The notes under the pieces were generated by a model. That model did not search any database. It worked only from the letters and a program-made list of their open reading frames with translations, and was not told the DNA's origin. From positions 310,001 through 374,000 of the IMG/VR virus record IMGVR_UViG_3300036853_000446: DNA of 64,000 bases; one strand, written 5' to 3'. This document shows positions 4,878-51,900 of this stretch, piece by piece (the first letter of the stretch is position 1; each line of letters begins with the position of its first letter). The position numbers and the translations under genes are program-made. The DNA comes from a virus.

Positions 4878-5237
4878 ATGCTTCACGACTACGACCGCCG
4901 CACCGCCAAAGCCCCCCAGGGGCGGATCGATCCTGCCACTCGCAGCGTCATCAACCGCGACCTCGAGAAGGCGGGGTTCGACGGCAATGGGCGCTTCGCG
5001 CGTATGGGTCAGGCCCTCTCCAAGGCTTTCGACGTCTTGAGTGAGCACGGCATCCAGACTGCCGAAATCATCAACGCCCACACCTTCAATCAATCCAAGG
5101 GCCACCGCCTCATCGAGCTAGCATTCTCGAATGCGGAAGACTCGTTCTCTCCAACGAGCGTCAGCAACGCAGGCCTAGCCTTCTCGTGGCACGACCTCGG
5201 CGACGAGCGGTTCGAGGTCATCGCCTACATTTCCTGA
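4878..5237 (+). CDS. Hypothetical protein, 119 aa
   Basis: Unknown. Start ATG 4878 is preceded by GGAAGGGGAGGACGACC, a strong ribosome site; an upstream in-frame start would run into gene 4531-4818. The C-terminal half (RLIELAFSNAEDSFSPTSVSN...SWHDLGDERFEVIAYIS) looks like a beta-sandwich strand set. Likely cotranscribed with 4531-4818. Confidence 0.75.
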   Translation: MLHDYDRRTAKAPQGRIDPATRSVINRDLEKAGFDGNGRFARMGQALSKAFDVLSEHGIQTAEIINAHTFNQSKGHRLIELAFSNAEDSFSPTSVSNAGLAFSWHDLGDERFEVIAYIS

Positions 5238-15351: not shown

Positions 15352-17052
15352 TCAAACGGTCACGCAGATCCTCGGGTGAACGGTCTCCGCTAAATACCTC
15401 TCCGCGACCTTGGAAGCCGCGCGGTCCTTATCGAGCAGGACGGCTTTGAACGACGCCTTCTGATCGGCGTTCATCTTCATGCCAAGGACGTAGAACTTGA
15501 AAGCTTCGGCAAAGGCTTCGTCGATATTTGTCTTACCATACTCGCTCACCGGCAGAATCTCGCGTACTTCCTCGTCCCACGCCTTCTGCTCCGGTGTTCG
15601 GTTGCCAAGCTCGTGTTCATTGAAGGCCGAGAATGCATGCTCGAGGCAAATATTGGAGGCGAGTGCCGCCGCACGTATCAGTTGACGGGCTGTTGCAAAC
15701 CACTCGGTCCAGACCTCAAGGACGGCCGAATCCTCCGCTGCGAAGGCATCTGGCGGCTTTTCCAAGCATTCCACAGCCTCTCTCACCGCATTCTGCACGT
15801 CCTTGTGGAGGGCTTTCCCTCTGCTGTCGACGAGGCGCGCCGCGCGCAAGGCAATCTCCTCCAAGGCCGAGATGCCATCGATGGATTGGCCCATACTTCG
15901 ACGGAGCTGGACGACAGACATCCTGCCGAGAATGACTTCCTTCTCACCCTGCTCGAGTGCCCTTAGAGCCTCTCCCTTCATTTCGGCAACGTCGTCCTTG
16001 GCATCCAAACCATCGGGATTGATCCGGCTCTCTCCGCCGGGTCGAGAATCTTCTCTGATGAGCACGAGCGATTCGAACTTCGCGCGCTGGCCTTGTGACA
16101 TGCTCTTGAACCAGTACCTGTGCCCGAGTTCGTGAACCATGACGTCGACCACCTGCGGGGACGGCCTGAGGAAGATTTTTACATGATCTTCCTGGATGTT
16201 GTAGTGACCTCTAACGTCGGGGCGCCCATCACAGGTCTGACAGTCGATAAAAACCGTGCCATACCACGCCCGATCGAGCTTCCTTCGCTTGAGCAGATGA
16301 TAGGCGGCATTGAGATGCTCGACATACTTATCGTGGTCGTCGGGCCCCACGCTCCAGTCATCGATGACGACCTTCATCCCCGCGAGTTCGAACTCGAGAT
16401 AGCGCCCCTTGCCCGTGGCGTAGTTCGAAAGCGTGGTTCGAACAAGCCCGACCCATTTGACGAGGTCGAGGTCAACCTTACCTTTCTTGATGAGCCGCGG
16501 GATGCTGCCATCCACGTGGTCCGCGTAGAAGGCCGCCGCGATCGGTGACTCGTATAATTCTACGGCCGCGGCCTCCTCCGGGGTGGCTTCCTTGAGGGCG
16601 CGAGCAGCCAGAGCTTTGACCTTCGCGGGGTCGATAGTGATTGGTGTTTTGAGAGCCTTGCCCAGCGTCTTCACATCCGCCGAGACCTTTGCGTTCACGA
16701 CGTTTCCAATGTGGCCCATCACGCACTCGAGGCGGGTCTTCGGCCACTGATAGTTCACGGCTACCGACGAATGGAAGTACGAGTCGCAGGTGCTCTTGAT
16801 GCTCGCGAGGCACGCCCGCGCAAGGGAATCGATTCCTGGCCTACTGACTGGTGCGAGGCCGATGATCTCCTTTCGGAATTGCTCGACCAGCGGAATGACG
16901 TTGGCCTTCATCAGGTAGATCGCGGTTGGCATCCCGTGGGACAGCGGCTCCGCCGAAAGCCTCTTGAACTCCGCCTCGTAGTCCTTGAAGAACTTGTCCG
17001 GGATGAACGCGCTGAGCACGTGCCGCGCAGCGACCCTTTGAACAAGGCTCAC
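15352..17052 (-). CDS. Zincin-like metallopeptidase with RVAxR-Y tags (paralogue 1)
   Basis: 566 aa from GTG 17052. N-terminal tag SLVQRVAARHVLSAFIPDKF closely matches the next gene. Zinc motif HELGH at residues 307-311 (MVHELGHRYWFKSM) with a likely third ligand in NIDEAFAEAFKFYV near the C-terminus, the HExxH...E pattern of gluzincins. A strand before it (AWYGTVFIDC) is shared with its paralogues. A second tag copy, SKVAERYLAE, sits near the C-terminus. GTG 17052 overlaps the upstream stop as GTGA; ATG 17070 is the alternative. No signal peptide, so it would act in the cytoplasm or be carried in the virion. Confidence 0.85.
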   Translation of the reverse strand: MSLVQRVAARHVLSAFIPDKFFKDYEAEFKRLSAEPLSHGMPTAIYLMKANVIPLVEQFRKEIIGLAPVSRPGIDSLARACLASIKSTCDSYFHSSVAVNYQWPKTRLECVMGHIGNVVNAKVSADVKTLGKALKTPITIDPAKVKALAARALKEATPEEAAAVELYESPIAAAFYADHVDGSIPRLIKKGKVDLDLVKWVGLVRTTLSNYATGKGRYLEFELAGMKVVIDDWSVGPDDHDKYVEHLNAAYHLLKRRKLDRAWYGTVFIDCQTCDGRPDVRGHYNIQEDHVKIFLRPSPQVVDVMVHELGHRYWFKSMSQGQRAKFESLVLIREDSRPGGESRINPDGLDAKDDVAEMKGEALRALEQGEKEVILGRMSVVQLRRSMGQSIDGISALEEIALRAARLVDSRGKALHKDVQNAVREAVECLEKPPDAFAAEDSAVLEVWTEWFATARQLIRAAALASNICLEHAFSAFNEHELGNRTPEQKAWDEEVREILPVSEYGKTNIDEAFAEAFKFYVLGMKMNADQKASFKAVLLDKDRAASKVAERYLAETVHPRICVTV

Positions 17053-18791
17053 AGGCAGGCCTCGAGCCATCGGTCCACGACCGTCGAGGCCATCTTGTCT
17101 TTGTCCAGCAGGACGGCTTTGAAGGACGCTTCCTGGTCGGCGTTCATGCCAAGGTCGAGCACGTAGTGAGCAAATGCCTCGGCAAATGCCTCACTGATGT
17201 TTGACTTGCCGTAGTCAGAAACGGGCGTGACGTCACGGGAGTCTGCATCCCACGCCTTCTCTTGCTGACTTTGAGCCTCATTGCTCAACGAAATCATGCG
17301 ATCGATATAAGCAAACGCTTTCTTCTGTAGCTCGGTTGCGTGTTCTTTTGCCGCTTCGACGAACGCCGCGCGACGCTTCTCAAAAGCTGAAGTGAGACCG
17401 GTGTCGTCGAGCACAGGCCCGCTGGGATCACCGAGCACCGAAAAAATCCGGTCCAGGAAATCGACCAAACCGTCACGAGCCTTCCTGGCCTCATCAAAAC
17501 GCCGGGCAGCCTCGGCATCCTTGGTGGGTGGCAGTTGAATGGGTACATTGAAGAAATCATAACGTGTCGACCTCGTGTTGAACTTCCGGAGCATCTGCTC
17601 AACCGGCAACGTGATCGGGGTCGCGAGGAAGCCCTCGAGATCGTCGGTCAGAGTCTTCAGCGTTGCAACCGTCTGTTTCTCAGCCTTGTCAGCAGCGCTT
17701 TGGACAGCGCGGGCATTGAAGTCGCCCGGATTCAACTCCTTATGAGCGCGCACCACTGACTCAAACTTCCCGCGTTGCCCCGGCGTCATGCTCTTAAACC
17801 AATACCGATGCCCGAGTTCGTGGGCCATCAGTTTAATGATGAACTTGCTCGGTCGGACGAAGACCTTCACGTGGTCGTCTTCGATATTGAAATGGCCACC
17901 TACCCCTCCGCCCGTGTTTTGGTTGACGCCACCACAGCTATCGCAGTCGATATAGACCGTTCCATACCACGCACGACCCAGCCTCTTTGCCCTGAGCTTG
18001 TGGTACGCGGCATCCAGATATTTGACGTATTTTTCTATCTCTTCAGAGGTCACGGTCGAATCATCGATCACAACCTTCATGCCTTTTAGATCGAACTGGC
18101 GATAGACGGGTTCCCCCGAGTAGTTGACCTCGAGCACACCCCGGACGAACTGGAAGAATTCCAGATAATTGATTTCAACCTTCTCCTTTTTGATCAGGCG
18201 CGCGACGGACTTGTCCACGTTGCGGGCGTAGAAGCCATACTTCAGTTCCAGGTTGCGGCTACCCCAGTCATCTGAGGCATCAATCGCAGCTCGCTCCTCT
18301 GGTGTGGCTTTCTTCAGAACTCGCTGAGCAAAGGCCTTGACCTGTGCACCGTCAATGGTGATGAGCGTCGTCAGAGCTTTCCCGAGGGTCGGAAACATGG
18401 CCCTGACTCTCTTGCTTATCTGTATCTCGATGTACTGGAGTACATGGTCAACGGTCGTGACGGCGGGATAGGGTGCCGCCGCCCCACGACCGAATTCCTG
18501 CAACCCCCGCGCCACCGTTTCTTTGAGAAACCTGACACGAGCCTCGAGTCGGTGAACCATGGTGGACTTCGCTTGGGGGACAAACTTAATCAACTCATTG
18601 ATGAACTCGGTCAGAAGCGGAACGACCTTTTCATCAATGAGCTTCGATGCCTCCCAGCACAGCGCACCGTCACTGAGGCGAGTCGCCAGCAACTTCTTGA
18701 GAGCTGCTTGATACCCCTCGAAGAATTTGTCCGGGATGAACGCGGCCATCCGGTAACGGGACGCGACACGTTCGACGAGGCTGCGAGGCAT
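17049..18791 (-). CDS. Zincin-like metallopeptidase with RVAxRY tag (paralogue 2)
   Basis: 580 aa. Tag SLVERVASRYRMAAFIPDKF at residues 4-23. Zinc motif HELGH from residue 324 (LMAHELGHRYWFKSMTPGQR) and the C-terminal NISEAFAEAFAHYV segment supplying the third ligand. Shares AWYGTVYIDC and the N-terminal IPDKFF module with paralogue 1, so the pair arose by tandem duplication. A long helical insert lies between zinc motif and C-terminus. A variant tag (TVVDRWLEA) ends the protein. First gene of the operon; divergent from the cupin gene. Confidence 0.85.
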   Translation of the reverse strand: MPRSLVERVASRYRMAAFIPDKFFEGYQAALKKLLATRLSDGALCWEASKLIDEKVVPLLTEFINELIKFVPQAKSTMVHRLEARVRFLKETVARGLQEFGRGAAAPYPAVTTVDHVLQYIEIQISKRVRAMFPTLGKALTTLITIDGAQVKAFAQRVLKKATPEERAAIDASDDWGSRNLELKYGFYARNVDKSVARLIKKEKVEINYLEFFQFVRGVLEVNYSGEPVYRQFDLKGMKVVIDDSTVTSEEIEKYVKYLDAAYHKLRAKRLGRAWYGTVYIDCDSCGGVNQNTGGGVGGHFNIEDDHVKVFVRPSKFIIKLMAHELGHRYWFKSMTPGQRGKFESVVRAHKELNPGDFNARAVQSAADKAEKQTVATLKTLTDDLEGFLATPITLPVEQMLRKFNTRSTRYDFFNVPIQLPPTKDAEAARRFDEARKARDGLVDFLDRIFSVLGDPSGPVLDDTGLTSAFEKRRAAFVEAAKEHATELQKKAFAYIDRMISLSNEAQSQQEKAWDADSRDVTPVSDYGKSNISEAFAEAFAHYVLDLGMNADQEASFKAVLLDKDKMASTVVDRWLEACL

Positions 18792-29359: not shown

Positions 29360-29361
29360 TT

Positions 29362-29369
29362 CCTTTTAT
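29362..29369 (+). promoter_or_regulatory. Class 3 box CCTTTTAT
   Basis: CCTTTTATCGGCG, 14 nt before ATG 29384; same spacing and near-identical sequence as at 33532 and 55999. Confidence 0.5.
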
Positions 29370-29383
29370 CGGCGGGCTACTGC

Positions 29384-30571
29384 ATGCCCGTAGCCCGCCG
29401 AGTCTCTCGCCGATATCTGGACCAGCAGACCGCTCGTCGTATCGTCGGCCGCGTCTTCTGGGCCATGAGCCGCGACGAGGCGAAGCGGACGCTCAAGCTT
29501 CCTCTTGGCGTGGAACCGTCGGACGAAGATATCGGCAAGGCATACAAGGCCCTCGTTCGGGACGCGATTCGCAACGATCCCGAAGCGGCGATCACGCAAG
29601 AGGCCTTGAAGGATTTCAACGTCGCCAAGGACACGCTCCGCGGGCAGTTCGACCGGAAGGCCCCTGGCACTGGCCCGAACGCACCCGAAAGTGGAGGACG
29701 CGCGCCGACAAACTTTAGACCCGAGCCACCACCGTCAGACCCACCGCCCATGCCCAAGGGCGATTCGTTTACGGTCGCGTTTCATACGCTCGGCAATGTC
29801 GAGTGGAAGATTGCGACCGACGGCGTCTACAACGAAGAAGTCGTCGTGGAGGACGAAGGTCCGCCCCGCAAGATCTATTGGACCCTGATCGAGGAGGTGA
29901 TTCTGATCGGCAAGACGGACACTCACTACGTCTTTGCCAAGCTCACGCAACGGACCAATTCCCGAAAAGATTACCGAGACAAGACCATCTACTCGCGCTG
30001 GGAATCTTTCAAATTTGTGCGTCCTGTCGCAGATCATAATCTGCTCAAGCTCGCTCCCAAGGTCCTCAAGGGCATGCGGGAAGGCGCGCACCGACGGGCC
30101 CAGTTCACGGTCCTCGAAGGGGCCCTGACCGAACAAAGGCTCCTGAATTTACGGGGCCGGCTCTCGCTCCCCGACGCGATCATCGGATCGGGCATCTTGG
30201 CCGAAGGCGCGCCGACCCCAAAGGGACGCAAGATCCAAGTCGAACTCGAACCTGTTTTCAATCAAGCCAAATACACGGCGATGTCCAGGATGAGCGAGGG
30301 TCACAACGCCTACGACTGGTTCCTCTACGTCAACGGCAAGCAGCACCAACTCGCCGATCACGAGGTCGAGGGTCTCAAGACGACGTACCTGCTGAGTTCG
30401 GTCTTCGGCTACGATTATAGGAAGGGCAGGGTCAACTTGACCCGACTCAAAGGCACGAGAATGAAGATGGGGCCGAAGGCCTCGCTCGATGCCCTCGCCA
30501 AGTCTCTCGACGCTGGCCCCGTGCGAGACGCTGTCGAACGGGCTTCCGAAGCCTTTCCGGAAGAAGGGTGA
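29384..30571 (+). CDS. J-domain-like protein with RVxRRYL tag, 395 aa
   Basis: N-terminal tag PVARRVSRRYLDQQTARRI (residues 2-20). Residues about 40-85 (EPSDEDIGKAYKALVRDAIR...ITQEALKDFNVAKDTL) look like a J-domain but lack the HPD loop needed to trigger Hsp70, with RND in its place. A proline-rich linker follows, then a large beta-rich domain, in which HTLGNVEWKIATDGVYNEEV is followed by WTLIEEVILIG and SRWESFKFVRPVADHNLL. Tag plus J-like domain at the N-terminus is an arrangement I associate with large uncultivated phages. Function unknown. Confidence 0.8.
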   Translation: MPVARRVSRRYLDQQTARRIVGRVFWAMSRDEAKRTLKLPLGVEPSDEDIGKAYKALVRDAIRNDPEAAITQEALKDFNVAKDTLRGQFDRKAPGTGPNAPESGGRAPTNFRPEPPPSDPPPMPKGDSFTVAFHTLGNVEWKIATDGVYNEEVVVEDEGPPRKIYWTLIEEVILIGKTDTHYVFAKLTQRTNSRKDYRDKTIYSRWESFKFVRPVADHNLLKLAPKVLKGMREGAHRRAQFTVLEGALTEQRLLNLRGRLSLPDAIIGSGILAEGAPTPKGRKIQVELEPVFNQAKYTAMSRMSEGHNAYDWFLYVNGKQHQLADHEVEGLKTTYLLSSVFGYDYRKGRVNLTRLKGTRMKMGPKASLDALAKSLDAGPVRDAVERASEAFPEEG

Positions 30572-30575
30572 AAGA

Positions 30576-31946
30576 ATGGCCAAGAAATCCCTGAAAGTCT
30601 CGGACGCGGAACAGAAGCGTATCGAGAAGCTGTTTGGCAAGGGCCTCACGAGTGCCGGCAAGAACCCAAAGAAGTTCTGGGAAGAGAAGAAGAAGCGGGA
30701 CGATGCCGTCAAGCCGTGGAAGGGTTTCGGCAAGGTCAAAGGCAAGACCAAAGACAAAACCACAGCCAAGGGCAAAGACGACGCGAAAGACGGGGGCAAA
30801 GGTAAGCAAGAGGCTAAAGGGAAAACCAAGGCCAAGACGGCCACGGTGCTCCACGTTGCCTACCGATACCTGCAGGCCATGGAGTTCGCGACTCCGGATG
30901 CGCTCGATAAATATCTCGGAGAGCACCCTGCGGCCGACAAGTCCCGTCACACGGTCAAGGAGCGTGACGAGAAAGCGCCAAAGAAGGACGACGCCAAGGC
31001 GGTAAAGAGCAAGCCCATGAAGGCCCCGGCGAAAGCCTCTCGCGTGGGCATTCCCGGCGACGAGGTTCTGCCGCCCCCGCGACTCCCGCGCCTCAGTGGG
31101 CTCAGCCCCGCCGAGAAAGGCATGGAGCACAAGATGAACTCCGCCATTGAGAAGGATCCCGCGGGCGCTGCCAAGGCCTTTACCGACGTCGCAAAGGCCA
31201 ACAACTGGGTCTTCGAAACGGATGGCGCCAAGGCGCTCATGCCCGAATGGACACGTCCTGACCTTCCGCCGGACGAAAAGGGCAAGGTCCACCCCGAGCG
31301 CGCCAAGTTTAGGGGCAAATACAACGCGGTCCTCCACCAGGGGGCGAACGCAATCGCCAAACGGTCCTTCGTCTCGCGCCTCGACGAGATCGAGAAGATG
31401 CCCGAGGACAAACGTCAAGTCTTGGTCACGAGTGGCGGAGTAGCGGCAGGTAAAGGGTCCGCGCTGGCTGCACAACCCGATCTCGCCAAGAGTGTCGCGG
31501 CCACGTGGGACGCGGCGGGTGAGCAGAACGCCACCGAGAACGACTGGGTACTCGACGAATGCAAGAAGCGCGGCATCAAACCCGTCTTCCTATTTGTGCA
31601 CGCGGATCCGGAGAAGAGCTGGCCGGGGGTCATCGAACGCGCCAAGGGTATTGGACGGATGGTGGACGCGCAACTCTTTGCCGACAGCTACGCGGTCGGG
31701 GCGAAGAACTTCGCGGCCTTTCACGCGAAGCACAAGGACGAGGCCTCCTTCGTGTTCGGACGCTTCAAGGGCCGCGGAGAGCCCGCCGAGATACTCGACA
31801 AGATGCCCCAAGAAGCGCTAGAGCTGGACGCGGACGAGATCTACGAGCGCGCCTCGAAATACGTGGACGACAAGAAGGACGATCTGCCCGATTTCGTTTA
31901 CCAAGGGGCTACGATTGGGCGCCGTACGTGGAAGGCGAAGGCATGA
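30576..31946 (+). CDS. Zeta-toxin-like P-loop protein with internal tag, 456 aa
   Basis: Lys-rich disordered N-terminus (1-90), then VLHVAYRYLQAMEFATPDAL at 91-110 leading into LDKYLGEHPAADKSRHTV, a tag plus short module. The C-terminal half is a kinase-like domain: P-loop VTSGGVAAGKGSAL and a downstream helix-strand series (GIKPVFLFVHADPEKSWPGV) like zeta toxins, which phosphorylate UDP-N-acetylglucosamine. No epsilon antitoxin is adjacent. An AAGAAGGGTGAAAGA ribosome site fixes ATG 30576. Confidence 0.8.
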   Translation: MAKKSLKVSDAEQKRIEKLFGKGLTSAGKNPKKFWEEKKKRDDAVKPWKGFGKVKGKTKDKTTAKGKDDAKDGGKGKQEAKGKTKAKTATVLHVAYRYLQAMEFATPDALDKYLGEHPAADKSRHTVKERDEKAPKKDDAKAVKSKPMKAPAKASRVGIPGDEVLPPPRLPRLSGLSPAEKGMEHKMNSAIEKDPAGAAKAFTDVAKANNWVFETDGAKALMPEWTRPDLPPDEKGKVHPERAKFRGKYNAVLHQGANAIAKRSFVSRLDEIEKMPEDKRQVLVTSGGVAAGKGSALAAQPDLAKSVAATWDAAGEQNATENDWVLDECKKRGIKPVFLFVHADPEKSWPGVIERAKGIGRMVDAQLFADSYAVGAKNFAAFHAKHKDEASFVFGRFKGRGEPAEILDKMPQEALELDADEIYERASKYVDDKKDDLPDFVYQGATIGRRTWKAKA

Positions 31947-32164
31947 CCATGAAGAGGTACGCCTTTTGGAGTGATCAGTTCGTCCAGCGCGGGCACCGAA
32001 CGCAGGTCTGGTCGACCATCGATGGGAAGGAGATTGAGGCCTGTTTCGTCCTCGCGACGGCGACCGCGCCCACCACCTGGTCAGATATCAAATCGCTCGG
32101 CGAGGTCGTCGAATGGGTGCGGAACGGTCAGCGTTCGATGTCCCCGCCGCCCGCTAAGCGGTAA
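31943..32164 (+). CDS. Hypothetical protein, 73 aa
   Basis: ATG 31943 overlaps the kinase-like gene stop as ATGA. The product (MTMKRYAFWSDQFVQRGHRT, WSTIDGKEIEACFVLATATA) is a small alpha/beta protein. Close coupling makes it a candidate partner of the zeta-like protein, which is inference only. Confidence 0.65.
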   Translation: MTMKRYAFWSDQFVQRGHRTQVWSTIDGKEIEACFVLATATAPTTWSDIKSLGEVVEWVRNGQRSMSPPPAKR

Positions 32165-42923: not shown

Positions 42924-44030
42924 TCAGAGGGTCAGCTCAAAGCGCTTCATCACCGACGAAGGTATCGGCATGTTGAACACGTACGTCGCGAACGTCTCAG
43001 CGAAATCCTCACGCACGTTCGTCGCCGCGTAGCTCGACACGGTTTCTACCTTCACGGATTTCAGCCGAACGTATCGGTGATTGGGGCGCACGACTTGCCG
43101 TTCGACCCAAGCTCCCGCCTCGCTGTAGGCTCGCCAGTAATCCTTCGGTGAGGCTCCGATCTCCTTCAGATACTCGGCGACGGGAAGCCCCTTCTCTCGG
43201 AGAAATTTCTTCGCAGCCGCCGGCCTGAACTCGCCCTTCACGAGTGCTTGAAACAGATCCTGCCGCTGGTCGACGGTAAGTCCGCCCGCCGAGTACAGGT
43301 CCTCGTACTGCTCTTGCTGTGCCGTCGAGAGATGCTTGTGCCATCGCCGGTGCCCTATCTCGTGTACCAGCGTGAAGACGTCCGAGTGTTGATTTTTCGC
43401 ATCTACGGTCAGCGCGATCGAGTCGCTGGCCTTAAAATATTCCCCTGCAACGCCAGGGCGACTCACTTTCGTATCCAGCAGGACTTCCCCGTACAGCAGG
43501 TCTCCGAACCCCTTTGCACGGACACGATCGGAGGCTTTGTCCAGCACCTCGAGGGGCTCGGCGTACTCCGACACGGAAAAGCCGTACTTGTTGACGATCT
43601 GCCATGGCCCATGGCTGAAGGTCTTCTCAACCTTAGCGTAGCCTTCGATCCGGTCTGCGACACGGCTCAACGACTTGAGCGTGTCTGCAAGCGACTCGAG
43701 GTGGTTGTGAATATGAATGTCTTGGATCGTCTCGTCGAGTTCGAGAGATCGGGAGTCGAAAGCTCTCTGAAGGTGCCGCAACCACCCGATCACGTTTTTC
43801 AGCTTCCGCTGCTCGTCTGGCCGCGAGAACTTGATGTTGTCGAGCGCCGACGCGAGTGGCGCCAGCTCCCGTCCAAGTTCGAGGAACCGCTCCTTGGCTG
43901 CGGGAATGTTCTTCGCCTGGAGGAGGGCTTCGATTCGCGGCCGCGCCGCCCTGAACGCTTGAATGGCGTCGTTCACGAGCTGTTTCGAGGCGTAGCGGGT
44001 CGCGACCCGGTACACCATCGTACTGGTCAC
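42924..44030 (-). CDS. Zincin-like metallopeptidase with RVAxRY tag (paralogue 4)
   Basis: 368 aa from GTG 44030. Tag MTSTMVYRVATRYASKQ at residues 1-17. Zinc motif HEIGH from residue 223 (FTLVHEIGHRRWHKHLSTAQ) and NVREDFAETFATYVF as the third-ligand region. The strand LLYGEVLLDT matches the YGTVFID strand of paralogues 1 and 2. Last gene of a four-gene operon with topoisomerase IB, coupled by GTGA at each junction. Confidence 0.85.
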   Translation of the reverse strand: MTSTMVYRVATRYASKQLVNDAIQAFRAARPRIEALLQAKNIPAAKERFLELGRELAPLASALDNIKFSRPDEQRKLKNVIGWLRHLQRAFDSRSLELDETIQDIHIHNHLESLADTLKSLSRVADRIEGYAKVEKTFSHGPWQIVNKYGFSVSEYAEPLEVLDKASDRVRAKGFGDLLYGEVLLDTKVSRPGVAGEYFKASDSIALTVDAKNQHSDVFTLVHEIGHRRWHKHLSTAQQEQYEDLYSAGGLTVDQRQDLFQALVKGEFRPAAAKKFLREKGLPVAEYLKEIGASPKDYWRAYSEAGAWVERQVVRPNHRYVRLKSVKVETVSSYAATNVREDFAETFATYVFNMPIPSSVMKRFELTL

Positions 44031-45160
44031 AGAAGCGACTCCATGATCGCGCCAATGCCCGGGGGCAGGTTCTTCCCCATGACATAGTGCGCGAATGCTT
44101 CCGCAAAGTTCTCCATCCAGCCGCCTGTCTTCCCGTAGCTCGTGACGTACTCGGGCTCGCGGACGACCTCCTTCGTCTTGATGGTAAAGTCCTTGCCGCT
44201 GACGACTGCCTTGCGCAGCTCCGCTTCGACGTCCTCCCCCTTCACGAACCGAACGCCAAGCTTTTGGGCAACGGAGCCAGCCGGCGTGCCGATGGTATGC
44301 CCCATCCACTCCAGGAACAGCTCCGATGGTTTCGGCTGGGGCTTGCCGTCACGCCGCGCCTTCGCGATGTCGATGTATTCGGCCGCGACGTTCTCCCGAG
44401 CCCCGGCGTCATATGTGATCTCGCGGTGCTCGGGCGTCGTGGAAAGACGCATGAACTCGTCCCGCTGGTCCTTGTTCTTCCAGAACTTGTAGAAGTACCG
44501 GTGCCCAAACTCGTGGCACAAGGCGTGGACGTCTCCGATGTTGCCCCGGGCCTTGAGGCTCAAGTAGACAACGTCGTTGGTCACATTGTAACGAGCGGCC
44601 GCCATATGATTCGACAGATTCTTGACGATGAAGACCCGCCCGTAGAGGACCTTTGGAAACTTTGGCTGGAGGATCTTGTAGGCCTTGTCGAGCGCCTCGA
44701 GACATTCTCGAACTTTAGGCCCCGTGACTCCGTGAGGCACGATCTCGAAAACGCCGTGCTGGAAGGTCTTGTCGTCGGCCTTGTTGATGATACCCTGCAG
44801 CCATTTGATTTCGAACGCGAGTTGGCCAAAAAGCTCCTGAGGAGCTGCGTCTGGTTCGAGCACCAGTCGTCCAAGAGCGCGAATGATGGTCAATGCTCTC
44901 TTCTGATGGCGGGGGCCGAGGGCGGAGTACCAGTCCGCGTCCACAGACCATCGGTCACCGTTACGTATGACATCGAGTTCCGCGAGCGCCTGCTCTACCA
45001 GGGCCACGTTGAACTTACCCGTACTCAGGCCCTGAACGACGGGGCCCAGAGCGCCGCGCGACAGGATGTATCGCGCCGCTACCCGCCCGGTCATCACAGC
45101 GGCTGCGGCCACCCGCGCCTTTACAGCCCACCGCGTGGCCACCCGAGCCGTCAGGTTCAC
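44027..45160 (-). CDS. Zincin-like metallopeptidase with double tag (paralogue 5)
   Basis: 377 aa. Two tag copies in tandem: LTARVATRWAVKARV (about 3-17) and VMTGRVAARYILSRG (about 22-36). Zinc motif HEFGH from residue 216 (HALCHEFGHRYFYKFWKNKD) and GGWMENFAEAFAHYVMGK. GTG 45160 overlaps the upstream stop as GTGA. The doubling of the tag in one protein is the clearest sign that it is a separable module. Confidence 0.85.
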   Translation of the reverse strand: MNLTARVATRWAVKARVAAAAVMTGRVAARYILSRGALGPVVQGLSTGKFNVALVEQALAELDVIRNGDRWSVDADWYSALGPRHQKRALTIIRALGRLVLEPDAAPQELFGQLAFEIKWLQGIINKADDKTFQHGVFEIVPHGVTGPKVRECLEALDKAYKILQPKFPKVLYGRVFIVKNLSNHMAAARYNVTNDVVYLSLKARGNIGDVHALCHEFGHRYFYKFWKNKDQRDEFMRLSTTPEHREITYDAGARENVAAEYIDIAKARRDGKPQPKPSELFLEWMGHTIGTPAGSVAQKLGVRFVKGEDVEAELRKAVVSGKDFTIKTKEVVREPEYVTSYGKTGGWMENFAEAFAHYVMGKNLPPGIGAIMESLL

Positions 45161-46518
45161 GCGACACCTTGAAGCGACAGATAGCGCTCTGCCACTCGCG
45201 TCGCGGCCAGTTTGGCCCCACCCAACCCACAAACCTGGCTGAAGAACTCCCGCGTCCATGGTTTGACGGCGCGAGGCCCCTTCGTAATCCACAGGCGAAA
45301 GACTTCGGCGAAGGCTTCCATCGGGTTCGTATTGCCGTAGTCGGTCGTCTCTTCGATCAGAACCGGCTCCCCTACCTTGGTCTCGAGAAATTTCGTGTAG
45401 GCTGCGGGGTCAAAGACTTTCACGTCCCAAGGCATGAGAATCATCTTAGCTAGCTCTCGAAACTTGGCTTCATCCGCGGCACCCCCCGCGTGAGGCAGAA
45501 CCGCCCGTAACCGATCGTCGTCCCCGTCCAGAGCCCTTAGTGTTTGAGAGTCAACCTTACGAATGATCAGGTCGGCGAACCTACGCACGTCGTCGCGCGT
45601 GATCTTCACCGACCGCGACATCATGACCTCCTCCCAGTGGTTTCGTGCCTGCACCGGCAATTCCCGAAAGTAGAAGCGGTGCCCACACTCGTGTACGAAA
45701 GTTCCGTGACCAGAATCGTCTCCCACGATTCCGAGCGAATACATGCTCAATGTGTCGGTCGCGGGCTGATACATCCCGGTTGTTGCCCACTCTTTCGCCT
45801 TCGTGTCGAAGTCGACCGTTACCGTCAGCCCTTTGACTGCCCCTCCGAATCCAGACCGTTTGATCTCGTCGACTCGTTGCCTGAGGCTTCGAAGGAAGGA
45901 CTCGAGATCATTCTGATCATCATCGTCACGTCCAAAGTTCAGTAGCACGACGTGGACGCCGCCTACCTCCAAATGGTCGACCGGGATGTAACGCTCGACT
46001 TTGCCTTCTGGTGACATTTCAAGGTAGTCGTCGATTTCCTTCAGCGCCTTCGTTGCCTTCAGTTGATAGCGCTTGATATTGCGGTCACGTTCGTGTCGAA
46101 GCTTCGACCAGTCGGGCTCCTTGCTCGGGTGGAAGACGGGGAAGAGCTGGTGGGCATCGAGTTCGTGCCTGAGGTCCCACGCGCTCGTTCGAATCGCCTT
46201 CTCCATGTGGGTTTCGGGCCGGTCCGACGCATGGGTCTTCGGGAGGAGTTCGCGATAAACCCACTCCTCAAAGTTTTCCCGAAAGTTACGAAACAGACTT
46301 CGGGCCTGCTCGAACACGGCGCGCGCATCACGAACGCGAGTCACGTCCGCGTCGTAGGGTACATCGGCGTCGATGGAGCGGTAGATCTTCGTCATGATGC
46401 GGAGGTCTTTCCGCCACCGATCAACAGTACTCTTGTCGAGGGTCCTCGCGCTTCGACCGCCGGTTGACAGATAGCGATGGACTAGACTCGCCGTGAGAGG
46501 TTCTCCGTCCATGATCAC
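45157..46518 (-). CDS. Zincin-like metallopeptidase with N- and C-terminal tags (paralogue 6)
   Basis: 453 aa. N-terminal LTASLVHRYLSTGG and C-terminal AATRVAERYLSLQGVA tag copies. Zinc motif HECGH from residue 276 (GTFVHECGHRFYFRELPVQA) and NPMEAFAEVFRLWITKG. GTG 46518 overlaps the topoisomerase stop as GTGA; ATG 46512 is an alternative. Conserved fold with variable helical surroundings suggests different targets for each paralogue. Confidence 0.85.
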   Translation of the reverse strand: MIMDGEPLTASLVHRYLSTGGRSARTLDKSTVDRWRKDLRIMTKIYRSIDADVPYDADVTRVRDARAVFEQARSLFRNFRENFEEWVYRELLPKTHASDRPETHMEKAIRTSAWDLRHELDAHQLFPVFHPSKEPDWSKLRHERDRNIKRYQLKATKALKEIDDYLEMSPEGKVERYIPVDHLEVGGVHVVLLNFGRDDDDQNDLESFLRSLRQRVDEIKRSGFGGAVKGLTVTVDFDTKAKEWATTGMYQPATDTLSMYSLGIVGDDSGHGTFVHECGHRFYFRELPVQARNHWEEVMMSRSVKITRDDVRRFADLIIRKVDSQTLRALDGDDDRLRAVLPHAGGAADEAKFRELAKMILMPWDVKVFDPAAYTKFLETKVGEPVLIEETTDYGNTNPMEAFAEVFRLWITKGPRAVKPWTREFFSQVCGLGGAKLAATRVAERYLSLQGVA

Positions 46519-47333
46519 CGCTCCAGATAGATTTCTGCGACGCAGGCCGCGGTCTTGACCATCTTGTCCATCACGCTGCCATCTTTCAAATACGCATCGG
46601 ATAACCCAGGCACGAGGTATTGATTCTCCAGCGTACCGGCCTCGTGGCCAACAGCCTCTGCTGTGGTCTCGAGTGCCTTCTTGAACTCCTTCTTGAGCTG
46701 AGTCTTACGCTCTTTCGGATCGGTTGGAAGCTTTCCACCTTTGCTCCGGACCGCCTTGAGTTCCGTCTTCATGGTTTCGTTTGCATGAAGTCCGCGAATG
46801 TCCTTGGCACTGATGTCAAATTCGTCGAGAAAGGTATTCACCTTCTCCGCCGTGATCTTACCCCCTTCATGGCAGAAGAGATCGCCGTCTTTGCAGTTCT
46901 CATGAGCATGTTTGAGAGCCGAGACGAGGGCCTTGTCGGTCACGGTCTTCTTCTGCTTGACTCCGCTCTTGCCTGTGTAGCTGATCGTAGCCTTGGCCTT
47001 GCCAAAGCTCACGTGGCTCTTCTGCCACCCGGTCACGCCCACGTGACCGAGTTCTTCCTTCGAAGTATCATTGCCGACCCGTTCCGCGGTGTGATCCATC
47101 AACCCGACGACGAGCGCCGTCAGGGCCGTCTCGGGGTCCTTTGACGCGAGGTCCTTCTTGACGCGGGCGCGGAGCTTGTGGACGCTCTTCCGCAGCTTCT
47201 CGAGCCGTTTGGCCTTGTCGCTGTTGCGCTTGGCAATTTGCCGCTCGGAATACTCGTAGACGACCGTGTCCGAGTCCGGGATTTTCTTCTTGGATTTGTA
47301 ACGAGCGGCAACTCGGGCAGCAATGGACGTCAC
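46515..47333 (-). CDS. DNA topoisomerase IB with RVAARY tag
   Basis: 272 aa. Catalytic residues of the poxvirus/bacterial type IB family are visible: R85 (AERVGN), K122 (YTGKSGVK), R180 (DIRGLHAN), H230 (VGHEAG) and Y239 (NQYLVPGL). It relaxes supercoils through a 3'-phosphotyrosine link without ATP. The N-terminus carries TSIAARVAARYKSKK, the same tag as the downstream peptidases. First gene of the operon 47333-42924. Confidence 0.9.
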   Translation of the reverse strand: MTSIAARVAARYKSKKKIPDSDTVVYEYSERQIAKRNSDKAKRLEKLRKSVHKLRARVKKDLASKDPETALTALVVGLMDHTAERVGNDTSKEELGHVGVTGWQKSHVSFGKAKATISYTGKSGVKQKKTVTDKALVSALKHAHENCKDGDLFCHEGGKITAEKVNTFLDEFDISAKDIRGLHANETMKTELKAVRSKGGKLPTDPKERKTQLKKEFKKALETTAEAVGHEAGTLENQYLVPGLSDAYLKDGSVMDKMVKTAACVAEIYLER

Positions 47334-50790: not shown

Positions 50791-51422
50791 GTAGAACGAC
50801 TCAACATTTTGAGCAGCGTCAGCGGGATCTCTTCCAGCTGAATTTCTTCCTCGACGATCTGACAGCCGAGCAGGATGGCCACCGAGAGAGGAACATGCTC
50901 ATCCAGGCCCCGCACGTGGTCGCGACTCGCCTTCGAGGCACGACGCTCGGCTTCCGAGAATTCCGCCGTCTCCCGTTGAGTGTTCTCGAATGTCTCGGGG
51001 CCAAAATAGACCGAGCGGCACATGTCCGGATCCTTCGTGGACGAGGTGACGCGACATCGGAACGGTCGACTGTAGTAGACGCTGCAAAGGCCATCGACGA
51101 GGAGCGGACACGGGATGGCCGCCATCAACCAGATCTCTGGCGCTGCACCGAAGGTCAAATGCGCGTGACGCTCGAGACTGGTCTTCAGCTGCGATCGCCA
51201 TAGGCCATCCTGCTGGAGAACCCGATACAAGGAGATGCCCTCCCAGATCGAGATCGTGACGGGGTAGTGGCAGCAATGATTGCAACCTTTGTGGCAGGTG
51301 ATGTTCTCGAGGCCCACCTTCATGGCAAACGAAACTGCGAGCCTGGATTTGGCGAGACGGCAGGAGGCAAGCCCCTGCTCCACCACGAGAGGGAGGTGGC
51401 GAACGCCTGAATCAGTCGACAA
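50787..51422 (-). CDS. YkgJ-family Cys-cluster protein
   Basis: 211 aa. CHKGCNHCCHYPVTISIWEG is the CxxxCxxCC metal cluster of YkgJ proteins, followed by CPLLVDGLCSVYYSRPFRCR, also typical (C-x-x-L...G-x-C-x-x-Y-x-x-R-P-x-x-C-R). The family binds Fe-S or zinc; role unknown. Start TTG 51422 overlaps the upstream gene by 11 nt; a later in-frame start is possible. Confidence 0.85.
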   Translation of the reverse strand: MSTDSGVRHLPLVVEQGLASCRLAKSRLAVSFAMKVGLENITCHKGCNHCCHYPVTISIWEGISLYRVLQQDGLWRSQLKTSLERHAHLTFGAAPEIWLMAAIPCPLLVDGLCSVYYSRPFRCRVTSSTKDPDMCRSVYFGPETFENTQRETAEFSEAERRASKASRDHVRGLDEHVPLSVAILLGCQIVEEEIQLEEIPLTLLKMLSRST

Positions 51423-51900
51423 AATCCTCCCCGTCGAGGTAGTCCATCAGGCCGCGCTTCTCGCTAACCCCCGACGCCCTCACCTTGCGCTCGGCCATCG
51501 ACCCATACCGCTTGGTGATGACGATACGACTGGCGCTACCATTCTTGTATTGGGCGATGAGAACTTCGCCGACCTTGAGCTTCAGCGCCGGGGTCATGAA
51601 GATCGAGCCCCCAGCGCGCGCCATGTCGCTTGGCACCCATTCAACGAGTGGCTCGAGGCACCTCGACCGAGCCCCCCGGGTCAGGGAGAGCTTGACGAGA
51701 GGGCCCGCGCTCGGCTTCACGCGGGCCGTAATGACGGGCCAATCGCTGGGGTTCGCCATGACTTGAGCCCCGGGGTCATCGTCGGCGATCTCTTCGAGAT
51801 CACCACCCCACCGGATGAGGGTCACCGTTCTGACGTTTTTGTCTTGTTTATAGACACGCCAGCGGTGACCCCCATATTTGACGAGGGCCCCGAGATCCAT
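51412..51900 (-). CDS. Phage-type hypothetical protein, 162 aa
   Basis: GALVKYGGHRWRVYKQDKNV, LEPLVEWVPSDMARAGGSIF and LKLKVGEVLIAQYKNGSASR recall a beta-rich protein family frequent in phage genomes with no assigned function. It starts 3 nt after the AT-hook protein stop. Confidence 0.75.
   Translation of the reverse strand: MDLGALVKYGGHRWRVYKQDKNVRTVTLIRWGGDLEEIADDDPGAQVMANPSDWPVITARVKPSAGPLVKLSLTRGARSRCLEPLVEWVPSDMARAGGSIFMTPALKLKVGEVLIAQYKNGSASRIVITKRYGSMAERKVRASGVSEKRGLMDYLDGEDFVD

What the first reader, a model, noticed from the sequence alone, without database searches (positions are those of the whole stretch)
29384..32164. Tagged J-like protein without HPD next to tagged zeta-kinase-like protein
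The J-like segment of 29384 has no HPD, so it cannot stimulate Hsp70 in the usual way and may be a binding decoy. The next gene carries the tag, a YLGEHPAADKSRHTV module and a P-loop domain like zeta toxin. Both proteins sit in one operon under a class 3 box. Together they look like host-directed effectors (chaperone interference and cell-wall precursor or nucleotide attack).
Basis: inference. Interest (0 to 1): 0.6.

Follow-up and report, generated by a model that had tools for sequence, protein, structure and literature searches.

The report
Phage cell-wall kinase with built-in inhibitor
A giant bacterial virus carries two neighbouring genes for proteins marked with a short tag shared by about twenty of its proteins: one has an enzyme domain shaped like bacterial zeta toxins, which poison cell-wall building blocks, and appears to carry its own inhibitor, and the other has a broken chaperone-helper domain; the features suggest, without proving it, that both are loaded into the virus head.

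Summary
The window is part of a 407,634-bp jumbo-phage contig related to Bacillus phage G. P0001 (29384-30571) has a terminal tag (RVSRRYL) and a degenerate J-like segment: it scores 39 bits against J segments of relatives (best of 3,000 shuffles 9), with HPD replaced by RNDP. P0002 (30576-31946) has the same tag, an HPxADxSxHTV module shared with large-phage proteins, and a kinase domain whose AlphaFold model (pLDDT 93) matches Neisseria zeta_1 toxin in the PDB (TM 0.74, E 1e-9). Residues matching zeta_1's catalytic Asp56, its Lys59/Asn75, Walker Lys and two Arg are conserved in all 37 aligned sequences that cover them. Relatives are fused to phage portal proteins. The motif was not found in 84,980 species genomes. 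New here: P0002's first ~57 residues are homologous to a small protein otherwise encoded directly after the kinase gene, a candidate cis antitoxin (compare E. coli EzeT). The HP module carries [A/S/G]-x-E-[F/H] (24 of 28 copies), like giant-phage prohead-protease sites; cutting there would free the kinase. A late-type box precedes P0001. Best reading: head-packaged, self-inhibited zeta_1-type UDP-sugar kinase. The chaperone-decoy idea is unsupported. Packaging, inhibition, cleavage and substrate are inferred.

The parts
29360..29369 (+). Late-type promoter-like box TTCCTTTTAT, 14 bp before P0001
   Evidence: CTTTTAT is enriched upstream of structural genes and rare elsewhere; the same box precedes the scaffold/capsid operon. 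Promoter activity not tested.
29384..30571 (+). P0001, 395 aa: tag, HPD-less J-like segment, Pro-rich linker, conserved C-terminal domain
   Evidence: paralogue in the same phage at 383241-384332 (31% identity)
29402..29419 (+). Terminal tag of P0001 (VSRRYL, res 7-12)
29468..29650 (+). J-like segment (res 29-89)
   Evidence: 39 bits against a profile of relatives (five of six with HPD), best of 3,000 shuffles 9 bits; helices 30-36, 47-64, 76-85 in the model
29570..29581 (+). RNDP (res 63-66) where relatives have HPD
   Evidence: Alignment A3
29759..30568 (+). C-terminal domain of P0001, beta-rich, unknown function, shared with J proteins of other large phages
   Evidence: no PDB match at E 0.001
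30576..31946 (+). P0002, 456 aa: antitoxin-like domain, basic linker, tag, HP module, zeta_1-like kinase
30600..30746 (+). N-terminal domain (res 9-57) homologous to the small protein encoded directly after the kinase gene in other phages; candidate cis antitoxin
   Evidence: E 7e-12 to the L025 ORF and 3e-11 to the L048 ORF; found after 9 kinase genes, gaps -32 to +3 bp, and fused C-terminally in L147
30855..30872 (+). Tag VAYRYL (res 94-99)
30876..30887 (+). AMEF (res 101-104): match to giant-phage prohead-protease motif [A/S/G]-x-E
   Evidence: P3 is A/S/G in 28 of 28 and P1 is E in 24 of 28 HP modules; the only such site in P0002 res 1-160. Cleavage not tested.
30912..30956 (+). YLGEHPAADKSRHTV module (res 113-127)
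31053..31943 (+). zeta_1-like kinase domain (res 160-456)
   Evidence: AF2 pLDDT 93.1, pTM 0.89; Foldseek PDB 6EPH E 1.3e-9, TMq 0.74
31221..31232 (+). Asp216 and Lys219, equivalent to catalytic Asp56 and Lys59 of zeta_1, N-terminal of the P-loop
   Evidence: Conserved in all sequences with a letter there (35/35, 36/36); function from PMC5923241
31323..31325 (+). Asn250, equivalent to Asn75 of zeta_1
   Evidence: 37 of 37; profile alignment
31434..31454 (+). Walker A GGVAAGK (res 287-293)
   Evidence: G287, G288, G292, K293 in 37 of 37
31638..31658 (+). Arg355 to Arg361, equivalent to Arg175/Arg181 of zeta_1
   Evidence: 37 of 37; same spacing of six residues
31943..32164 (+). 73-aa ORF overlapping the P0002 stop; no relation to the antitoxin-like domain seen

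Best explanation
P0002 is a zeta_1-type kinase that phosphorylates UDP-activated sugars (cell-wall precursors). It is made late together with P0001 and held inactive by its own N-terminal domain, which in other phages is a separate protein encoded right after the kinase. The tag (and HP module) steers it to the growing phage head. Cleavage at AME103/F104, probably by the head maturation protease, or dissociation after entry, frees the kinase, which then acts on the next host. P0001 is a co-made head or host protein whose work is done by its conserved C-terminal domain; its J-like part is a leftover contact surface that cannot stimulate Hsp70 in the usual way. Shown: fold, conserved residues, homology of the N-terminal domain to the separate partner, HPD loss, tag and motif statistics. 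Inferred: substrate, inhibition, packaging, cleavage, timing.
For: Fold and residues. Relatives fused to phage portals (PF04860, PF06381) and to SNF2 and UDG domains as in packaged polyvalent proteins. Motif absent from 84,980 species genomes. Partner domain adjacent or fused in 11 cases. Precedent for a cis-inhibited zeta kinase (EzeT). Tag/HP module sits on a 906-938-aa protein encoded between portal and head protease in this phage (tag) and two relatives (tag and module). [A/S/G]-x-E motif. Late-type box shared with the head operon. Kinase and J-family genes lie within 4 kb of each other in three of the four records holding both.
Against: No virion proteomics exists for this phage or its relatives in the papers found. 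P0002 itself is below the Pfam Zeta_toxin cut-off (18.1 against 22.3 bits). The antitoxin-like domain does not match any solved antitoxin and could be an adaptor instead. Most tag-only proteins, P0001 included, lack an [A/S/G]-x-E site close after the tag, so cleavage may concern only HP-module proteins. The specificity of this phage's protease is unknown. In L147 the fused partner domain has no such site before it. J and kinase genes are arranged differently in different phages (62 kb apart in G001).
Confidence: 0.5

Rival explanations
1. The kinase acts in the cell where it is made, late in infection: draining cell-wall precursors weakens the wall and helps lysis; the N-terminal domain only delays it. 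The tag has another role, such as placing the protein at a phage assembly site.
For: Late-type box; zeta_1 expression causes lysis (PMC5923241).
Against: Portal fusions of relatives; tags on about twenty unrelated enzymes and on a head-cluster protein.
Confidence: 0.2
2. The kinase is not a cell-wall toxin but modifies another nucleotide-like substrate, for example a defence signal, NAD-like molecule or RNA end; the domain after it is a cofactor.
For: The zeta fold is shared with kinases of other substrates (AvrRxo1 and polynucleotide kinase appear lower); the family-specific motif WD[SA]AG[DE]QNxTE is unexplained.
Against: Residues equivalent to the UDP-sugar contacts of zeta_1 (Lys59, Asn75, the two Arg) are fully conserved.
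Confidence: 0.25
3. P0001 is an Hsp70 decoy: its HPD-less J segment binds host DnaK without stimulating it.
For: J-like segment retained although HPD is lost; HPD also lost or altered in relatives.
Against: No evidence that the segment still binds Hsp70. Other phages keep HPD in the same protein, which argues for a co-chaperone origin followed by decay rather than selection for a decoy.
Confidence: 0.12
4. The small domain at the P0002 N-terminus is a head-loading adaptor rather than an antitoxin.
For: Always encoded next to the kinase; no match to known antitoxins; the L025 version ends in YDYDR, like a second tag of these phages.
Against: Short, predicted-helical by sequence, directly after the toxin gene or fused to it, the usual layout of an immunity or antitoxin protein.
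Confidence: 0.25

Closest known systems
Neisseria zeta_1 toxin (epsilon_1/zeta_1; PDB 6EPG, 6EPH, 6EPI; PMC5923241)
   Same: Fold over 286 columns; catalytic Asp, Lys and Asn before the P-loop; two Arg after it; same Arg spacing
   Different: 15% identity; no C-terminal OB domain in the modelled fragment; extra N-terminal partner domain, tag and HP module; phage-encoded
E. coli EzeT (zeta-type kinase with N-terminal antitoxin domain; PMC4826407)
   Same: Inhibitor-like domain fused N-terminally to a zeta-type kinase
   Different: Inhibition not tested here; the inhibitor-like domain is homologous to a separately encoded phage protein; a tag and module lie in between. Sequence homology to EzeT was not tested.
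Polyvalent and MuF/portal-fused phage effectors (PMC5512222, PMC5576092)
   Same: Relatives of the kinase are C-terminal to phage portal proteins or in multidomain proteins with SNF2 and UDG
   Different: P0002 is a stand-alone protein with a terminal-type tag instead of a portal fusion
Jumbo-phage DNAJ proteins (PMC7824862)
   Same: J-like segment; some relatives keep HPD
   Different: HPD lost; tag at the N-terminus; distinct conserved C-terminal domain
T4 capsid-targeting sequence and phiKZ/SPN3US head propeptides (PMC10052503, PMC5694885)
   Same: Short terminal signal on many otherwise unrelated proteins; Glu-terminated motif in HP-module proteins
   Different: Sequence unrelated; packaging and cleavage not shown

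Membership tests
Zeta toxin superfamily | Zeta-type P-loop phosphotransferase fold | tested here: met
   Foldseek PDB top six all zeta_1, E 1e-8 to 1e-9, TMq 0.70-0.74
Zeta toxin superfamily | Pfam PF06414 gathering score (22.3) | tested here: not met
   P0002 18.1 bits; one close relative, L048, passes with 23.9
zeta_1 subfamily (UDP-sugar 4'-kinases) | Catalytic Asp, Lys, Asn N-terminal of the P-loop and paired Arg after it | tested here: met
   D216, K219, N250, K293, R355, R361 conserved against PMC5923241; equivalence of Asp and Lys rests on sequence spacing, not on superposed coordinates
zeta_1 subfamily (UDP-sugar 4'-kinases) | Phosphorylates UDP-sugars | not testable with these tools
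   Needs enzyme assay
Cis-inhibited toxin-antitoxin (EzeT-like) | Antitoxin domain fused to the kinase | tested here: inconclusive
   Domain homologous to the separate downstream partner; inhibition not shown; no match to solved antitoxins
J-domain co-chaperones | HPD motif | tested here: not met
   RNDP at the HPD position
J-domain co-chaperones | J-domain homology | tested here: met
   39 bits, best of 3,000 shuffles 9; Pfam DnaJ itself gives no hit for P0001
J-domain co-chaperones | J fold in predicted structure | tested here: inconclusive
   Helices at expected places but pLDDT 69 overall and no J-domain PDB match
Head-packaged (ejected) phage proteins | Present in virions | not testable with these tools
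   No proteomics available
Head-packaged (ejected) phage proteins | Targeting or propeptide signal shared with head proteins | tested here: inconclusive
   Tag/module on a head-cluster protein; [A/S/G]-x-E motif; function not shown

The most novel reading that the evidence does not exclude
A phage head carries a pro-toxin: a zeta_1-type cell-wall kinase made with its own antitoxin domain, sorted into the capsid by a short tag shared by some twenty enzymes, and switched on when the head maturation protease cuts [A/S/G]-x-E between inhibitor and kinase.
Probability: 0.22. Interest if true: 0.85.

Novelty: new variant of a known kind. Interest (0 to 1): 0.6.

Why it matters
Zeta kinases are known as bacterial toxin-antitoxin parts. 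A branch seen here only in phage contigs, fused to portal proteins in some phages, with a partner domain that moves between a separate gene and a fusion, would show how phages arm the virion with cell-wall poisons while protecting the producing cell. The shared tag and HP module give a simple handle to predict the set of head-packaged proteins of phage-G-like jumbo phages from sequence, which could be checked by one proteomics run.

Tried and rejected
tblastn of P0001, P0002, the kinase domain and a portal-fused relative against 50,697 phage records found nothing related; the primase hits to P0001 (E 0.05) are chance. The search for related loci with single proteins in viral contigs failed or returned the query locus; DNA patterns for conserved peptides worked. 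PHROGs and NCBIfam gave no hit for either protein. A PDB search with the small partner domain found no antitoxin. I rejected PDB phmmer hits to ShuY/ChuY as chance. The CCGGTGTA and CGGATCAAA-CCCGTACT promoter classes precede replication, chaperone and small genes. A CGGTGTA site also lies 67 bp before the gene upstream of P0001, so co-transcription from there is possible. The portal-fused kinases do not have a demonstrable homologue of the partner domain after them.

Full report
WHERE. The window is 310001-374000 of a 407,634-bp IMG/VR virus record. Its capsid protein is 83% identical to an uncultured 485-kb phage, 49% to Tunturiibacter phage Tunturi_5 and 40% to Bacillus phage G, so it is a phage-G-like jumbo phage. 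It has its own GroEL-like and ClpX-like genes by inspection.

P0001. 395 aa, 29384-30571. Tag at residues 7-12. Residues 29-89 are homologous to J segments of relatives: a profile built without P0001 gives 39 bits (E 6e-11) against a best of 9 bits among 3,000 shuffles. HPD is replaced by RNDP. Whole-record searches of 18 phage contigs found relatives in seven. HPD is intact in L025, L138 and L140, HTD in L139, lost in L142 and its near-identical copy L141, and lost in the paralogue of this phage at 383241-384332. A seventh match, L143, resembles a third J protein of this phage at 171064-172077, which keeps HPD and bears a C-terminal tag. P0001's AlphaFold model is mediocre (pLDDT 69) and its beta-rich C-terminal domain matches nothing solved.

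P0002. 456 aa, 30576-31946. Conserved-peptide patterns found 94 stretches in viral contigs, about 50 of them kinase relatives with a GGxxxGK loop and none in 84,980 species genomes (an earlier scan, agrees). The alignment of 37 gave a model with pLDDT 93 and pTM 0.89. The six PDB matches below E 0.001 are all chains of Neisseria zeta_1 toxin; the sequence profile also picks zeta_1 first (E 0.0019). Zeta_1 is topologically rewired: catalytic Asp56, Lys59 and Asn75 precede the P-loop, and Arg175/Arg181 follow (PMC5923241). The phage family has D216, K219, N250, Walker K293, R355 and R361 in that order, with no exception among letters present. I matched D216 and K219 by motif spacing (aDTFKELF against tDGAKALM), not by superposing coordinates.

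Context of relatives. Kinase domains of the same family sit at the C-terminus of proteins with Phage_portal (L046, L062, E 1e-93 or better) or Phage_portal_3 (L093), or of proteins with SNF2/helicase (L052, L101) or uracil-DNA glycosylase (L107) domains. Such combinations are described as packaged, injected polyvalent proteins (PMC5512222).

A partner domain. In nine kinase loci the next ORF (gaps -32 to +3 bp) begins with or consists of a ~50-aa element. In L147 it is fused at the kinase C-terminus. In P0002 it is the N-terminus: E 7e-12 and 3e-11 to the small ORFs of L025 and L048 (E-values for single comparisons). A small protein that travels with a toxin gene as neighbour or fusion is what an antitoxin does, and EzeT is a precedent for a cis antitoxin on a zeta kinase (PMC4826407). 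No inhibition has been shown, and the element does not match a solved antitoxin.

Tag, module and head. The tag is enriched at both protein ends. Bearers include a type IB topoisomerase, a GNAT, a 2H phosphoesterase and zinc-peptidase-like proteins, that is, enzymes one would expect among delivered proteins. The tag with the HP module lies on a 938-aa protein encoded right after the portal gene in L042, and on the same protein upstream of a head protease in L040. The 906-aa equivalent here (90952-93672, between portal and protease) has a tag-like stretch. In 28 distinct HP modules the residues just after the tag read [A/S/G]-x-E-[F/H] with A/S/G in 28, E in 24. SPN3US cuts at A-x-E and phiKZ cuts at similar sites (PMC10052503, PMC5694885). 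In P0002 the only such site before residue 160 is AME103/F104, between partner domain and kinase. The modules are related to each other, so this is not 28 independent observations, and tag-only proteins mostly lack a site close to the tag.

Expression. The box TTCCTTTTAT lies 14 bp before P0001 and also precedes the scaffold-like gene next to the capsid gene and genes of the tail/structural cluster. This fits late expression with virion proteins; it is a sequence match only.

Verdict. The zeta-like fold is as good as established. UDP-sugar kinase activity is the most likely function but untested. Virion packaging is likely; cleavage activation is an attractive reading that nothing here proves. 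The chaperone-decoy reading of P0001 is not supported beyond the absence of HPD. Kinase and J-family genes are neighbours in three of four records that hold both, so the pairing is probably more than chance but not obligatory.

Noticed in passing
Contig 146264-146893, 149607-150140, 157402-158325, 238761-239423, 51163-51633 (outside the window): A second, longer shared N-terminal module, MxKIxSPxxLxxELxxLLxYAxxxxPSRxxLAxxLxxLAxRVA; in the protein at 238761 (with the upstream start seen) it is followed by the tag and the HP module.
   Followed up: no
Window 4878-5237 (+); contig 142166, 159505, 264645; L142 N-terminus: A third short N-terminal tag, HDYDRR or YDYDRR. One J-family relative (L142) carries it in place of RVAxRYL, as if the tags were interchangeable.
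   Followed up: partly
Window 42924-47333 (-): Run of tagged genes: three paralogous zinc-peptidase-like proteins (HExxH-type motifs) and a tagged type IB topoisomerase.
   Followed up: partly
Window 15352-18791 (-): Two tandem paralogues with zinc-peptidase-like motifs, the first tagged at both ends.
   Followed up: no
Whole contig: Three promoter-like classes: CGGATCAAA-N11-CCCGTACT, CCGGTGTA about 10 bp before start codons (leaderless-like), and TCCTTTTAT.
   Followed up: partly
Contig 382609-383244 and L048 317-949: A ~210-aa protein with a signal-peptide-like start lies beside the P0001 paralogue here and beside the kinase in L048.
   Followed up: no
L067, L052, L090, L101, L113: In other phages the kinase and the partner-domain protein carry a different module, GPxGGxWADPxHT, perhaps the counterpart of the HP module.
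   Followed up: no
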